A stretch of DNA of 12,470 nucleotides from Solirubrobacteraceae bacterium. GTDB lineage: Bacteria > Actinomycetota > Thermoleophilia > Solirubrobacterales > Solirubrobacteraceae. Positions 8,107-12,470 of the stretch are shown piece after piece; the first letter of the stretch is position 1; each line of letters starts with the position of its first letter. The stretch covers positions 27,798-40,267 of the forward strand of contig JAEMSV010000033.1 in the NCBI GenBank assembly GCA_016462625.1. Reading direction: 5' to 3'. The notes under the pieces were generated by a model. That model ran no database searches, was not told the origin of the DNA, and saw only the letters and a list, made by a program, of their open reading frames with translations. Position numbers and translations under genes: made by a program.

Positions 8107-8382
8107 CTACCAGCCGCCGGCCCAGTGGGCCGCCGTGCTGCGGGACTTCTCGGCCGCCTTGCGGCGGTCCTTGCGCTTCTCCAGCCACAGCTGGAGCATC
8201 GACATCGTGAAGACGAAGAGCGGGAAGAACGCGATCAGCACGAACCCGAAGTTCGTGACGATCTTGTCGGTGGTCTCGCCGTACCAGCCTTCGCCGCCGT
8301 CGTGAGGCCCGGCGAGGGCGGGAGCGGCCGCGACCAGAAGCATGGTGGCGGCGAACGTGAGGGTCGTGAAAGTGCGTCGCAT
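8107..8382 (-). CDS. Small single-pass membrane protein, 91 aa, function unknown
   Basis: The sequence shows a signal peptide (MRRTFTT, then a hydrophobic core, then AAPALA at residues 19-24). A short Gly/Asp-rich outside segment, GPHDGGEGWYGETTDK, comes next. A transmembrane helix spans about residues 44-67 (NFGFVLIAFFPLFVFTMSML and onward). The tail is very basic (EKRKDRRKAAEKSR) and ends in HWAGGW. This gives a type I topology with a cytoplasmic positive tail. I do not recognise a named family. The ATG at 8382 is preferred over the longer frame because it begins the signal peptide. A TAGAAT box at 8394-8399 leaves room for only a very short leader. It is divergent from the crotonase gene, with 25 bp between start codons. 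Confidence 0.75.
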   Translation of the reverse strand: MRRTFTTLTFAATMLLVAAAPALAGPHDGGEGWYGETTDKIVTNFGFVLIAFFPLFVFTMSMLQLWLEKRKDRRKAAEKSRSTAAHWAGGW

Positions 8383-8393
8383 CGTCGGATCAG

Positions 8394-8399
8394 ATTCTA
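8394..8399 (-). promoter_or_regulatory. -10 box of the 91-aa protein gene
   Basis: TAGAAT on the minus strand (8399 to 8394), 11 nt before the ATG at 8382, predicts a leader of only a few bases. The 25-bp gap to the crotonase ATG at 8408 must hold both divergent promoters, so they overlap. No clear -10 box for the crotonase gene is visible. Confidence 0.4.
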
Positions 8400-8407
8400 T
8401 ACCGGAC

Positions 8408-9118
8408 ATGGAATTCTTGGAGCGTTCCCGTCCCGTCCCCGGCGTCGAGGTGCTGCGTCTGAACCGGCCCGATGCGCGCAACGCGCTCCACACGCCGTCG
8501 TTGGTCGAGCTGCTGGAGGTGCTGCGCGCCGTCTCGGCCGATCCGGAGGTGCGGGTGCTGGTCCTCTCCACGACGTCGACGGTCGCCTTCTGCGCGGGAG
8601 CCGACGTTGGCGAGAAGCTCGATCACGACGGCGGCGTACGGCGCATGGAGCTCTTCTGCGACCTGTACCGGGAGTTCGAGGCGCTGCCGATGCCGACCGT
8701 CTGCGTGTGCGTCGGCAACGTGCTCGGCGCCGGGACGGAGATCGCGGCGACCTGCGACCTCCGCGTCGGCGGCGACAACCTCAAGCTCGGCTGGGTCGCC
8801 GGCCGGCTCGGCGTCCCGGTGGGCCCGGCGCGACTGGTGCCGCTCGTGGGGGTCGCGCGCGCGAAGGACCTGGCGTTCACGACGCGGGTGATCGGCGCGG
8901 ACGAGGCCGCGTCCCTCGGCCTGGTCAGCGAGGTCGTTCCGGCCGCGGAGGCTGAGGCTGCGGCGGTGGCGCTGGCCGCACGGGTCGCGGAGAACCGGGG
9001 GATCCGCCAGCTCAAGCAGATCTTCCGGGGCCTGGAGGAAACCCAGGACCGCGTGGAGTTCGAGAACGAACTGCTGATGCGCTTCCAGCGCGAAGAAGGC
9101 GGCCTTCCGGCGGGGTAG
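8408..9118 (+). CDS. Enoyl-CoA hydratase/isomerase family (crotonase-fold) protein
   Basis: A 236-aa crotonase-fold protein acting on acyl-CoA thioesters. The oxyanion-hole segments are visible: AFCAGADVG (residues 60-68) and NVLGAGTEIA (104-113). Glu111 aligns with catalytic Glu144 of mammalian enoyl-CoA hydratase. The second hydratase glutamate (Glu164) aligns with Ala131 in LKLGWVAGRLG, so classical hydration is doubtful; an isomerase or another single-Glu crotonase reaction is more likely. The ATG at 8408 was chosen because the family N-terminus starts here (MEFLERSRPVPGVEVLRLNRP). The longer frame from 8342 would run into the divergent 91-aa gene. No Shine-Dalgarno is seen, so the mRNA may be leaderless. 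It could serve fatty acid degradation, but no partner genes sit beside it. Confidence 0.85.
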   Translation: MEFLERSRPVPGVEVLRLNRPDARNALHTPSLVELLEVLRAVSADPEVRVLVLSTTSTVAFCAGADVGEKLDHDGGVRRMELFCDLYREFEALPMPTVCVCVGNVLGAGTEIAATCDLRVGGDNLKLGWVAGRLGVPVGPARLVPLVGVARAKDLAFTTRVIGADEAASLGLVSEVVPAAEAEAAAVALAARVAENRGIRQLKQIFRGLEETQDRVEFENELLMRFQREEGGLPAG

Positions 9119-9139
9119 GGGGCGAACACGGAGGGCGTC

Positions 9140-9172
9140 GTGACTAGACGTTGATATGCAACGTCAAATCAC
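9140..9172. repeat. Palindrome over the start codon of the DUF559 gene (left copy)
   Basis: Arms GTGACTAGACGTTG (9140-9153) and CAACGTCAAATCAC (9159-9172) match at 12 of 14 positions around a 5-nt centre, ATATG, whose last three bases are the ATG at 9156. The core GACGTTG/CAACGTC is perfect. A matching palindrome lies at 10066-10102. As direct repeats, 9140-9176 and 10068-10104 agree at 29 of 37 positions. As inverted repeats, 9162-9180 and 10060-10078 agree at 18 of 19. Confidence 0.8.
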
Positions 9173-10076
9173 CACGGACCATCGGATCGCCGCGCTTGCC
9201 GGGAGGCAGGCGGGCCGTGTGAGCCGTGAACAGCTGCTGGAGCTGGGGTTCGGCCCGGGCGCCATCGACCACAGGAAGGCCGTCGGGCGCCTGCACCTCG
9301 TGTCCCGCGGGGTCTATGCCGTCGGCCATACGCACACCTGCGGCCACGCGGCGAACTGGACCGCGCTGCTCGCCTGCGGTCCCGAGGCGGTATTGAGCCA
9401 CCGGTCGGCCGCGGCCGCCTGGGGCGTTCTGCCTTGGCCCGCCACGATCGTCCAGCTCACCGTCCCGAACCAGCGGGGCCGTACTCGGCGCCGCGAGGGC
9501 ATCCGCGTACACCGCGGGTCCGTGCCGGATACTGAGCGTGCGCGCCGCGGCGGGTTCCCGGTGACGTCATTGGCCCGGACGTTCCTTGACCTCGCGGCAA
9601 CCGAGCCGCCTCGGGTCGTCGAGCAGGCGCTCGACAGCGCGGAGACGCAGCGGAACTTTGACATGCGTGCGATCGACGCCCTCGCCCCCGAAGGCTCGAC
9701 GCGGCCCGGCGCGGCGGCCTTTCGCGCGGTCCTGGCGACGCATCTCCCGGGTACGACCATCACCAAGAGCGACCTGGAAGAGGCGATGCTCTCGCTCTGT
9801 CGGCGGCATCGGCTGCCGCGGCCGGTCTTCAACGCGTACGTCGAAGGCTGGGAGGTCGACGTCGTCTGGCGCGCCGAGAGGCTCTGTGTCGAGGTCCAGA
9901 GCACGCGGTACCACGCGACGTCGCAGCGGATTGCGAGGGATGCCGAGAAGGAGGCTGACCTCATGGCCGCGGGCTGGGCGGTCCTCCACGTGGCCGACCG
10001 CCACGTGCTCCACGAGCCAGACCGGGTCGCCGACCGGGTCCTCGCGGTCCTGGCTGGGAGGTCCATGGTGATTTGA
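9156..10076 (+). CDS. AbiEi-like winged-helix / DUF559 nuclease-fold protein
   Basis: 306 aa. The N-terminal part (about 8-60, IAALAGRQAGRVSREQLLEL to RLHLVSRGVYAVG) is the AbiEi-type winged-helix DNA-binding domain found in type IV antitoxin-like proteins. The middle region has LSHRSAAAAWG and PVTSLARTFLDLA, typical of these proteins. The C-terminal part (about 205-300) looks like DUF559, a Vsr-like PD-(D/E)XK nuclease fold. Candidate active-site residues are Glu209, Asp235 (VEVDVVW) and Glu246-x-Gln248 (VEVQS), where Gln replaces the usual Asp/Lys, followed by His253. No AbiEii-type toxin gene is adjacent, so it is an orphan. Its first and last codons lie inside matching palindromes. To my eye its codons are slightly less GC-biased than those of the neighbours. 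It could be a regulator, a nuclease, or both; its role is unknown. Confidence 0.82.
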   Translation: MQRQITTDHRIAALAGRQAGRVSREQLLELGFGPGAIDHRKAVGRLHLVSRGVYAVGHTHTCGHAANWTALLACGPEAVLSHRSAAAAWGVLPWPATIVQLTVPNQRGRTRRREGIRVHRGSVPDTERARRGGFPVTSLARTFLDLAATEPPRVVEQALDSAETQRNFDMRAIDALAPEGSTRPGAAAFRAVLATHLPGTTITKSDLEEAMLSLCRRHRLPRPVFNAYVEGWEVDVVWRAERLCVEVQSTRYHATSQRIARDAEKEADLMAAGWAVLHVADRHVLHEPDRVADRVLAVLAGRSMVI

Positions 10077-10102
10077 CGCTGGCGTACAACGTCAATTCAC
10101 CA
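10066..10102. repeat. Palindrome over the stop codon of the DUF559 gene (right copy)
   Basis: Arms TGGTGATTTGACGCTG (10066-10081) and CAACGTCAATTCACCA (10087-10102) match at 14 of 16 positions around a 5-nt centre, GCGTA. The stop codon TGA (10074-10076) is inside the left arm. The element ends 12 nt before the -10 box of the ABC-F gene, so it covers the -35 region and could act as an operator there. Confidence 0.8.
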
Positions 10103-10114
10103 CGACACGGCACC

Positions 10115-10120
10115 TACCAT
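10115..10120 (+). promoter_or_regulatory. -10 box of the ABC-F gene, leaderless arrangement
   Basis: TACCAT fits the TAnnnT -10 pattern and is followed by exactly 6 nt and then GTG at 10127, so transcription should begin at or next to the start codon. No Shine-Dalgarno precedes this GTG. The -35 region overlaps the right palindrome. Confidence 0.5.
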
Positions 10121-10126
10121 GGATTC

Positions 10127-12022
10127 GTGGCCGTCCTCATCGCCTCCGACCTCGCCAAGGACATCTCAGGCACCCCGCTGCTCCGTGGGGTGTCGCTCAA
10201 GCTCGAGCGGCGCGACCGGCTGACCATCGCCGGGCGCAACGGCGCGGGCAAGACGACGCTGCTCCGGATGCTCGCGGGGCAGACGTCGGTCGACGGAGGC
10301 GAGCTGGTCTTCGCCAAGGGCACGAAGATCGCGCTGCACGACCAGCGCCCGCCGCGCGACCGCGACATCACGCTGCGCGAGTACGTGCAGAGCGCCAACA
10401 AGGAGCTGATCGCCCAGGAGGCCCGGCTCACCGAGCTCGAACACGCCATGGCCGACGGCGACGAGAAGATCTTCGACGAGTACGCGCGGCTGCAGACGGC
10501 CTTCGACGCGGCCGGTGGGTACACATGGCGCGAGCGCGCGACCCAGACCATCCACGGCCTGGGCTTCACCGACGAGTCGCTCGATCGCCAGCTCTCCACG
10601 TTCTCCGGCGGCCAGCTCACCCGCGCCTCCCTCGCGCGCGCGCTCGCCGGGACCCCCGACCTGCTCCTGCTCGACGAGCCGACCAACCACCTCGACATCG
10701 AGTCGCTCGAGTGGCTGGAGAAGACGCTGCTCGACCTCGACGCCGCGATCATCCTCGTCGCCCACGACCGCTGGTTCCTGGAGACCGTCGGCACCGCGGT
10801 GCTCGAGGTCGAAGCCGGCAAGACGCGGTTCTTCCCGGGCACCTGGGCGCAGTGGCGCCGGGAGGCCGCCGCCCGCGAGCTCGCCCTCGGCCGCGCGATC
10901 GACAAGCAGCAGAAGGAGATCGAGCGGATGGAGAAGTTCGTCGAGCGCTTCCGCGCGAAGGCGACGAAGGCCAAGCAGGCGCAGTCCCGCGTGAAGGCGC
11001 TCGACAAGATCGAGCGGATCGAGCGCGACCCGCGCGACGGCGAGGGCCTGGCGTTTCAGTTCGCCAAGCCCGAGCGCACCGGCCGCGTGATCTTCGAGCT
11101 CGAGGACGGGAAGGTCACCATCGGTGACCGGACGCTCATCGAGCACGGCGAGCTGTGGCTCGAGCGGGGAGAGCACGTGACCGTCGTCGGCGCGAACGGC
11201 ACCGGGAAGACCACCCTGATCGAGACGCTCGCCGGCGAGCGCGAGCTCGCGGGCGGGAAGCTGCGCAGCGGGCACAACATCAAGGTCGGCTACCTCTCCC
11301 AGCACGGCGACACGCTCGGCCAGGGCGGGGCACGGACCGTGCTCGAGGCGACGATCAAGCAGACGGGCCTGACCCCCGGCAAAGCGCGCTCGCTGCTCGG
11401 CCGGTTCCTGTTCAGCGGGGAGGACGCGGAGAAGGAGCTCACCGGACTCTCCGGCGGCGAGCGCCAGCGGGTCAGCCTCGCGATTCTCGTCTCCAGCGGC
11501 GCGAACGTGCTGATCCTCGACGAGCCGACCAACCACCTGGACCTCGAATCGCGCGAGGCGCTGGAGGACGCGCTGTCGGGCTACGAGGGCGCCGTCCTGC
11601 TGATCACCCACGACCGGGCGCTGCTCGACGCCGTCGGCTCGCGGACCATCGCGCTGGAGGACCAGCGCCTGCACTCGTACATGGGTGGCTGGGCGGAGTA
11701 CGTGCGGGTGCGCGAGGAGCGCAAGGCCGCGCCGACGCCCAAGGCGAAGGCGAAGGCCGCCGAGCCCAAGCCGAAGGCCGACAAGACGAAGCCCGTCGCG
11801 GCGAACGGCAACGGGCACTCGAAGAACGCGCGCAAGCGCGTGCAGCAGGCCGAGCGCGAGATCGAGCAGGCCGAGCAGAAGCTCGCGACGGTCGAGGAGG
11901 AGCTTGCGAGCCCCGACGCGTGGGCAACCCCGAGCCAGACGGAGAAGAGCACGGCGCGCCACAACGCCGCCAAACGCGAGGTCGAAGAGGCGTACGCGAG
12001 GCTGGAAGCGGCTGAGGCCTAA
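10127..12022 (+). CDS. ABC-F family ATPase (ribosome-associated, Uup/EttA-like)
   Basis: A 631-aa protein with two ABC ATPase domains and no membrane segment, typical of ABC-F factors that act on the ribosome E site. Domain 1 has Walker A GRNGAGKTT (36-44), signature FSGGQ, and LLLDEPTNHLD with catalytic Glu184. Domain 2 has GANGTGKTT (355-363), LSGGERQRVS, and LILDEPTNHLD with Glu466. Between them is a charged helical linker (P-site tRNA interaction motif region, KQQKEIERMEKFVERFRAKA and on). The C-terminus has a Lys/Ala/Pro-rich stretch and a coiled coil (about 575-631), as in Uup. The start is GTG at 10127; a TTG at 10073 would add 18 residues encoded by the palindrome and promoter. Whether it is housekeeping or gives antibiotic resistance cannot be decided from the sequence. 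Confidence 0.93.
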   Translation: MAVLIASDLAKDISGTPLLRGVSLKLERRDRLTIAGRNGAGKTTLLRMLAGQTSVDGGELVFAKGTKIALHDQRPPRDRDITLREYVQSANKELIAQEARLTELEHAMADGDEKIFDEYARLQTAFDAAGGYTWRERATQTIHGLGFTDESLDRQLSTFSGGQLTRASLARALAGTPDLLLLDEPTNHLDIESLEWLEKTLLDLDAAIILVAHDRWFLETVGTAVLEVEAGKTRFFPGTWAQWRREAAARELALGRAIDKQQKEIERMEKFVERFRAKATKAKQAQSRVKALDKIERIERDPRDGEGLAFQFAKPERTGRVIFELEDGKVTIGDRTLIEHGELWLERGEHVTVVGANGTGKTTLIETLAGERELAGGKLRSGHNIKVGYLSQHGDTLGQGGARTVLEATIKQTGLTPGKARSLLGRFLFSGEDAEKELTGLSGGERQRVSLAILVSSGANVLILDEPTNHLDLESREALEDALSGYEGAVLLITHDRALLDAVGSRTIALEDQRLHSYMGGWAEYVRVREERKAAPTPKAKAKAAEPKPKADKTKPVAANGNGHSKNARKRVQQAEREIEQAEQKLATVEEELASPDAWATPSQTEKSTARHNAAKREVEEAYARLEAAEA

Positions 12023-12028
12023 CGGCCG

Positions 12029-12034
12029 TAGGAT
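12029..12034 (+). promoter_or_regulatory. Possible -10 box of the permease gene
   Basis: TAGGAT fits TAnnnT and lies 7 nt after the ABC-F stop codon. A transcript starting 7 nt downstream would begin near 12041, next to the apparent beginning of the permease reading frame, as at the other leaderless genes here. Confidence 0.35.
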
Positions 12035-12042
12035 CCGGCGGT

Positions 12043-12470
12043 ATCGCCCTCGCTATCGGCATCTTCGTCGTCGCGCTCGCGCTGATCGCGACGGATTGGG
12101 TCGACCGGACGAAGATCGCGCTCGCCGCCGCGATCCTGTTGATCCTCACGCAGACGATCGATCAGGAGCACGCGATCGCGTCGGTGGACTTCAACACCAT
12201 CGGCCTGCTCGCGGGGATGATGCTCATGGTCAAGATCACCGAGACCACGGGCGCGTACACCTATCTCGCGATCCGCGCCGGGCAGCTGAGCAAGGGGCGC
12301 CCACTGCTGCTCGTCCTGGCGCTCACCGGCTTCACGGCGCTGCTCAGCGCGTTCCTGGACAACCTGACGACGGTCCTCCTCGTCGTCCCCATCACCTTCC
12401 TGCTCGCCGACGCGCTGGACATCGACCCGATCCCGCTCGTGATCATGGAGGTCATCGCGTCGAACATCGG
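12043..12470 (+). CDS. ArsB/NhaD-type ion permease (3' end outside window, start codon unclear)
   Basis: About 142 codons of a multi-pass transporter of the ion transporter superfamily (ArsB/NhaD/P-protein group). The sequence runs IALAIGIFVVALALIATDW (first membrane segment), VDRTKIALAAAILLIL (second), then DFNTIGLLAGMMLMVKI, a further segment LLLVLALTGFTALLSAFLDNLTT, and VPITFLLADALDIDPIPLVIMEVIASNIG. FNTIGLL, LDNLTTVLLVVP and ASNIG are family hallmarks. The reading frame is open from 12016, but no ATG, GTG or TTG occurs in frame before TTG at 12139, which would remove the first membrane segment and most of the second. I place the start at ATC 12043 as the best guess. The substrate (arsenite, Na+/H+ or other) cannot be told from the visible part. 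Confidence 0.78.
   Translation, partial: MALAIGIFVVALALIATDWVDRTKIALAAAILLILTQTIDQEHAIASVDFNTIGLLAGMMLMVKITETTGAYTYLAIRAGQLSKGRPLLLVLALTGFTALLSAFLDNLTTVLLVVPITFLLADALDIDPIPLVIMEVIASNI

What the first reader, a model, noticed from the sequence alone, without database searches (positions are those of the whole stretch)
9140..10102. A DUF559/AbiEi-like gene bounded by matching palindromes over its start and stop codons
Seen directly: two long palindromes with core GACGyTG-N5-CAACGTC lie 928 bp apart, one centred on the ATG at 9156 and one containing the stop at 10074-10076. Their inward arms extend into a 19-bp inverted repeat (9162-9180 against 10060-10078, 18 of 19 identical), longer than the palindrome itself, as expected for the ends of a unit that moves as one. 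The repeats are part of the reading frame, so gene and ends cannot be separated. Inference: this may be a minimal mobile or homing-like cassette with its own Vsr-like nuclease-fold protein, of a kind I cannot name. Vsr-like homing endonucleases are known in other settings.
Basis: partly seen in the sequence, partly recalled or inferred. Interest (0 to 1): 0.82.

Follow-up and report, generated by a model that had tools for sequence, protein, structure and literature searches.

The report
Nuclease genes with own scattered palindromes
A bacterial gene that fuses a repressor-like fold to a homing-endonuclease-like fold sits between two copies of a DNA palindrome; relatives suggest that many such genes have a private palindrome, sometimes scattered around the genome and changing in step with the gene, which looks like an unrelated counterpart of the known REP system.

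Summary
In detail: both palindromes and the 18-of-19 inverted repeat are where stated. The window is from a Solirubrobacteraceae bacterium. The protein models as an AbiEi-like fold joined to an I-Bth0305I/Vsr-like nuclease fold.

The moving-cassette reading is not supported: orthologues keep their places in relatives while their palindromes differ. Of 94 homologous loci, 33 have matching repeats at both ends, against 4 of 747 shuffled pairings and 10 of 1252 predicted genes; outside the family 11 of 24 against 0 of 288. Four genomes carry extra solo copies: 3 in Svornostia, 7 and at least 14 for two G002 families, at least 8 in G004, 7 in G059; G077 has none. At one site inside a gene, two species carry different palindromes, each that of its own DUF559 orthologue.

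Best reading: a REPtron-like pairing whose partner is an AbiEi-EDxHD protein instead of a HuH transposase. Binding, cutting and spreading are inferred. Ten paper searches showed no such link in their listings.

The parts
9136..9176 (.). Start palindrome; core GACGTTG-ATATG-CAACGTC with the start codon in the loop, outer arms GTGA/TCAC
   Evidence: same architecture with other arms in Svornostia and G002
9156..10076 (+). DUF559 gene, 306 aa (P0001): AbiEi-like part about residues 3-197, nuclease-like part 205-304
   Evidence: Pfam DUF559 above its cut-off, AbiEi_4 and MTES_1575 below theirs; AF2 pLDDT 90.4; fold matches
10066..10102 (.). Stop palindrome; core GACGCTG-N5-CAACGTC, contains the stop codon and lies just before the ABC-F gene
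9162..9180 (+). Inward arm of the first palindrome, extended to 19 bp
   Evidence: 18 of 19 complementary to 10060-10078, read
10060..10078 (+). Inward arm of the second palindrome, extended to 19 bp
   Evidence: 18 of 19 complementary to 9162-9180, read
9118..9147 (+). Possible promoter of a leaderless transcript: GGGGGCGAAC, then CTA ten bases before the ATG, overlapping the palindrome (inference)
   Evidence: Similar GGGGGCGA... and CCTA-N9-ATG before several homologues, seen by eye; not tested
8342..9118 (+). Crotonase-family gene, left neighbour at the junction
   Evidence: Pfam ECH_1; syntenic in L001, L002, L004
10127..12022 (+). ABC-F gene, right neighbour (start codon chosen by comparison with relatives)
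   Evidence: NCBIfam ribosomal protection-like ABC-F; tblastn in relatives

Best explanation
A REPtron-like pairing: one protein gene plus a private family of palindromes that it recognises. Shown: genes of this family often have matching repeats at both ends; several have further copies of the same palindrome elsewhere in the genome; and the palindromes change together within a genome while the gene stays in place. Inferred: the AbiEi-like half binds the palindrome and, by covering the start codon, represses its own gene; the nuclease half nicks or cuts at or near palindromes, so that repair copies a cognate palindrome into place. Old palindromes are overwritten and the set stays matched. What homes is a 35-50 bp hairpin, not the gene.
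For: 33 of 94 loci with matching ends against 4 of 747 shuffled pairings, 10 of 1252 ordinary genes, 11 of 24 against 0 of 288 outside the family. Private families with solo copies: G001 5 places, 2 at the gene; G002 10 places, 3 at the gene; G002 second family 14 solo plus 2, G004 8 solo plus 2; G059 9 at 2 mismatches or fewer, 2 at the gene, against 1 in 8 other genomes. Concerted change: WS/DGAT-like gene site; within-gene similarity exceeds between-orthologue similarity in 7 of 8 pairs, 1 tie. Solo copies: 10 convergent, 9 tandem, 2 divergent, 6 in-gene of 27, against 11, 81 and 44 of 136 background gaps. Fold: AbiEi part and EDxHD nuclease part; E208, D235, H253, D262 invariant in 61 sequences. 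AbiEi proteins bind inverted repeats in promoters (PMC7319586, passages).
Against: 61 of 94 loci score below 16. G077 has only its two bracket copies. At one of six compared sites G001 and G002 have similar palindromes, and at another G001 has none. In the alignment to the 3r3p chain, D235 and H253 fall on alanine, so the active site is not proven by that comparison; both residues are kept in 3hrl. The 7-of-8 result used hand-cut palindromes from genes that already matched. No binding, cutting or movement was tested.
Confidence: 0.58

Rival explanations
1. The protein is a transcription factor and the palindromes are its operators: one for autoregulation, one before the ABC-F gene, the rest a small regulon that follows the factor's changing specificity. 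The nuclease half is inactive or accessory.
For: AbiEi and Rv2827c autoregulate through inverted repeats (PMC7319586, passages). The start palindrome covers the start codon. The stop palindrome lies just before the ABC-F gene. Copy numbers are small.
Against: Of 27 Svornostia solo copies only 2 lie between divergent genes and 10 between convergent genes; one lies inside a WS/DGAT-like gene. Nuclease residues are invariant in 61 homologues. At four orthologous sites the two genomes hold palindromes of different families, odd for conserved regulation.
Confidence: 0.22
2. The palindromes are ordinary terminator-type hairpins; hairpins in one genome resemble each other through unguided gene conversion, and the DUF559 genes happen to lie between two of them.
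For: Solo copies lie mostly behind genes. Sites keep a palindrome while its family changes.
Against: Each DUF559 gene has its own palindrome, whereas ordinary genes rarely have matching ends (10 of 1252). Start codons sit in the loops: 8 of 96 loci with all 7 pairs against 5 of 672 control windows. Families are found in the genome that has the matching gene and not in two relatives.
Confidence: 0.1
3. One reading: gene plus end palindromes form a minimal mobile cassette that moves as one unit.
For: Matching ends. The gene is absent from the same junction in G004. The nuclease fold is that of a homing family.
Against: Paralogues are syntenic orthologues in G001, G002 and G004. Palindromes differ between orthologues. 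Palindromes also occur alone. I found no clean empty site; the only gene-less junction (G004) holds other hairpins.
Confidence: 0.05

Closest known systems
REPtron: TnpA-REP (RAYT) with cognate REP palindromes
   Same: Gene beside its palindromes, palindromes scattered genome-wide, gene mostly single and not mobile (PMC8266576, passages); REPs lie mostly between tandem and convergent genes and sometimes inside genes (PMC3733652, abstract), as here
   Different: The partner is an AbiEi-like plus EDxHD/Vsr-like protein, not a HuH transposase; copy numbers are lower; several families coexist in one genome
AbiEi antitoxin and Rv2827c (type IV toxin-antitoxin)
   Different: Extra nuclease domain; no AbiEii toxin next door (neighbours are crotonase and ABC-F); second repeat at the stop codon and solo copies elsewhere
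EDxHD homing endonuclease I-Bth0305I and Vsr
   Different: No intron or intein seen around it; the gene shows no sign of homing; hairpins are what is dispersed
CGTC-tagged REPs without a known transposase
   Same: REP-like palindromes for which no dedicated enzyme was found (PMC3733652, abstract and passages)
   Different: Reported mainly from alpha-proteobacteria; any link to DUF559 is my guess and untested

Membership tests
REPtron (TnpA-REP/REP) | Partner gene flanked by its palindromes | tested here: met
REPtron (TnpA-REP/REP) | Cognate palindromes dispersed in the genome | tested here: met
   Met in G001, G002, G004, G059; not in G077; not testable for the window's own genome
REPtron (TnpA-REP/REP) | Partner is a HuH tyrosine transposase | tested here: not met
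   Positive assignment to other families: Pfam DUF559 above cut-off; residues 3-197 AbiEi-like and 205-304 EDxHD/Vsr-like. So it is not filed as a member
REPtron (TnpA-REP/REP) | GTAG tag beside the palindrome | not tested
   No search was made for it
REPtron (TnpA-REP/REP) | Gene itself not mobile, vertically inherited | tested here: met
   Syntenic orthologues among G001, G002, G004; three genomes only
AbiE type IV toxin-antitoxin | AbiEi fold | tested here: met
AbiE type IV toxin-antitoxin | Adjacent AbiEii (DUF1814) toxin gene | tested here: not met
   Both neighbours are other families; the weak AAA_21 row of the ABC-F protein is one of many ATPase matches
EDxHD homing endonuclease | Catalytic fold and E, D, H, D residues | tested here: inconclusive
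EDxHD homing endonuclease | Its own gene is copied into empty alleles | tested here: inconclusive
   Gene absent at the junction in G004, but other hairpins lie there; synteny elsewhere

The most novel reading that the evidence does not exclude
A second, independently evolved REP-type system: AbiEi-derived palindrome readers fused to a homing-endonuclease domain spread and homogenise families of 35-50 bp hairpins by cut-and-copy, several families side by side in one actinobacterial genome, each tied to one DUF559 paralogue that regulates itself through the hairpin at its start.
Probability: 0.35. Interest if true: 0.9.

Novelty: new variant of a known kind. Interest (0 to 1): 0.74.

Why it matters
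Homologues of this protein are common and of unknown function: 67 of 198 sampled genomes of the phylum have one, 47 of 61 in the family. If each reads its own palindrome, these genes carry their substrate beside them, so specificity and function become directly testable. It would also show that REP-like hairpins can go with an enzyme unrelated to RAYTs, and it suggests where to look for the partner of palindrome families that lack one.

Tried and rejected
First coding-context model: it called the WS/DGAT-like gene antisense, so I dropped it and used one trained on known genes. That gene finder is still crude, and in-gene calls are rough.

A degenerate pattern for the L163 family was one base too long and found nothing; this is no evidence.

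A short-palindrome scan of viral contigs gave 100 stretches, which I took as probably chance for so short a pattern and did not follow. A plasmid search with 9000-12400 gave matches whose query ranges I saw only in the ABC-F part, in the 20 rows listed. The genome scan with P0001 found no relative, so the ABC-F protein was used.

The window's family in relatives: 22 of 146 genomes match at 2 mismatches or fewer, mostly one place each and partly chance; one exact copy in G004 at a contig end, not followed.

The 1.9 kb of extra DNA in G004 beside a Svornostia palindrome site: no long ORF looked like DUF559 to me (by eye, no family search).

Family assignment of 32 of 360 palindromes in 1.6 Mb of Svornostia had no shuffled-reference control. 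The 27 sites classed are 26 of those 32 (3 bracket copies and 3 weak ones dropped) plus one. In one search the reversed-pattern controls were high at 3 mismatches (3 to 18 per genome), so I count 2 or fewer.

Rows dropped: 2 of 96 loci and 3 of 27 (ran off the stretch, or no alignment). Some matches counted are direct repeats that are not clearly palindromes. Loci were taken by similarity to P0001, not at random. With the looser cut of 6 of 7 pairs, start-codon hairpins are 20 of 96 against 43 of 672.

The name WS/DGAT for the interrupted gene is from recall; no family search was run on it.

Full report
What is there. The window is from a Solirubrobacteraceae bacterium: its ABC-F protein is 87%, 89% and 86% identical (best segment) to Svornostia abyssi (L001, G001), a Solirubrobacteraceae MAG (L002, G002) and L004 (G004). 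The core pair alone is not rare (a comparable pair in 23 of 300 shuffles); the extended match is (score 20, reached by 2 of 747 mismatched pairings).

Orthologues at the locus. Svornostia and G002 have the gene at the same crotonase/ABC-F junction; G004 has the junction without it. Of 30 ABC-F loci examined, with about 1.5 kb upstream, only those of G001 and G002 had a DUF559 match (52 of 61 genomes had an ABC-F match). The Svornostia copy reads in two frames. In all three species the start codon sits in the loop of a palindrome and the stop codon lies in a second palindrome with the same arms, but the arms differ between species: GACGTTG in the window, TGCGTTC in Svornostia, CACGGC in G002. 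G002 has a third copy behind the crotonase gene.

Not only this gene. Of 96 homologous loci of the family (window included), 94 could be tested: 33 score 16 or more for a match between start and end regions, against 4 of 747 pairings of start and end from different loci; by eye three of those four are genes whose palindromes look like one family. Of 1252 predicted genes in 1.6 Mb of Svornostia 10 reach 16, one of them a DUF559 gene. An unbiased scan for similar palindromes 120-2500 bp apart in the same 1.6 Mb gave 22 pairs: two are DUF559 genes, the top pair looks like the ends of an insertion sequence, and most others look like coding repeats (by eye). In a sample across the phylum 11 of 24 testable loci reach 16, against 0 of 288; some are direct repeats, others long palindromes. 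The start codon lies in a hairpin loop with all 7 pairs formed in 8 of 96 loci, against 5 of 672 control windows.

Scattered copies. Svornostia has 5 places for its family, 2 of them at the gene; G002 and G004 have none. G002 has 10 places for its own family, 3 at the gene; the other two genomes none. Another G002 family shows 14 solo copies plus 2 brackets and a G004 family 8 solo plus 2; these come from BLAST-listed places, so they are lower bounds. G059 has 9 at 2 mismatches or fewer, 2 of them brackets, against 1 in the 8 other genomes of the call. G077 has only its brackets. In 1.6 Mb of Svornostia 32 of 360 strong palindromes resemble a DUF559 bracket family at score 16 or more, 3 of them brackets (no shuffled control). 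Of 27 solo copies 10 lie between convergent genes, 9 tandem, 2 divergent and 6 in-gene, while 136 background gaps split 11, 81 and 44 (crude gene calls).

Change in step. One Svornostia copy lies inside a gene that I take for a WS/DGAT acyltransferase (recalled name). The orthologous gene of G002 carries, at the same place, a palindrome of the family of G002's own DUF559 orthologue; G004 shows what looks like a decayed one. In all, six G001-G002 sites were compared. Four hold palindromes of different families in the two genomes: the WS/DGAT site, 537406 (where only one flank aligns), 485804 and 494482. One holds similar palindromes (L406) and one has none in Svornostia (L409). Two further G002 copies had no counterpart and one only a weak, unfollowed match in the fetched part of Svornostia. 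In 8 orthologue pairs similarity within a gene exceeds similarity between orthologues in 7 and ties in 1 (palindromes cut by hand from genes that already matched).

Not a hopping cassette. Flanks show that several paralogues are syntenic orthologues between G001, G002 and G004 (for example L163/L164, L165/L170, L178/L181, L177/L180/L187). What turns over is the palindromes.

Mechanism. Shown: bracketing, dispersal, concerted change, predicted fold. Inferred: the AbiEi-like half reads the palindrome, occupancy of the start palindrome represses the gene, and the nuclease half drives copying of the cognate hairpin into other sites. The closest known arrangement is the REPtron, where the gene lies by its palindromes, is mostly single copy and shows no mobility, while the palindromes are genome-wide (PMC8266576, passages). 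It lacks that family's defining protein, so I do not file it there; it works like one.

Literature. Ten searches (DUF559 with palindromic; REP with RAYT, 28; AbiEi with inverted repeats, 35; DUF559 with repeats, 45; very short patch repair with palindromic repeats, 46; REPtron, 79; I-Bth0305I, 80; REP elements with homing endonuclease, 81, no paper; Solirubrobacter with palindromic, 92; REP with Actinobacteria, 93) returned nothing that, from the listings, links DUF559 proteins to palindrome families. I saw passages of PMC8266576, PMC7319586 and PMC3943268, and the abstract and passages of PMC3733652; other papers only as listings. Subscription papers and preprints are mostly outside that library.

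Noticed in passing
L004 (CAMCUD010000002.1): The record is titled Bifidobacterium breve, but its ABC-F protein is 86% identical to the window's and its gene order matches this Solirubrobacteraceae group; probably mislabelled.
   Followed up: no
G001:C1:2648966-2649870 (L160): The Svornostia orthologue of the DUF559 gene matches in two reading frames: a pseudogene or a sequencing error.
   Followed up: no
G001:C1:1686442-1688884: Two palindromic stretches about 2.4 kb apart match over at least 45 bp in inverted orientation, like the ends of an insertion sequence.
   Followed up: no
L004:5883-5996: The gene-less crotonase/ABC-F junction of G004 holds two tandem hairpins resembling the palindromes beside another DUF559 paralogue of G004 (L179).
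   Followed up: partly
G258:C439:2046-2119: Two palindromes with the window's core arms 51 bp apart, and a third on C270.
   Followed up: no
G004:C32:21616-23548 (L424): About 1.9 kb of extra DNA in G004 at the position of a Svornostia palindrome; what it encodes was not settled.
   Followed up: partly
G004:C45:22600-23290 (L451): A short DUF559 remnant (match to the nuclease part only) still lies between two copies of a palindrome family that has at least 8 solo copies in G004.
   Followed up: no
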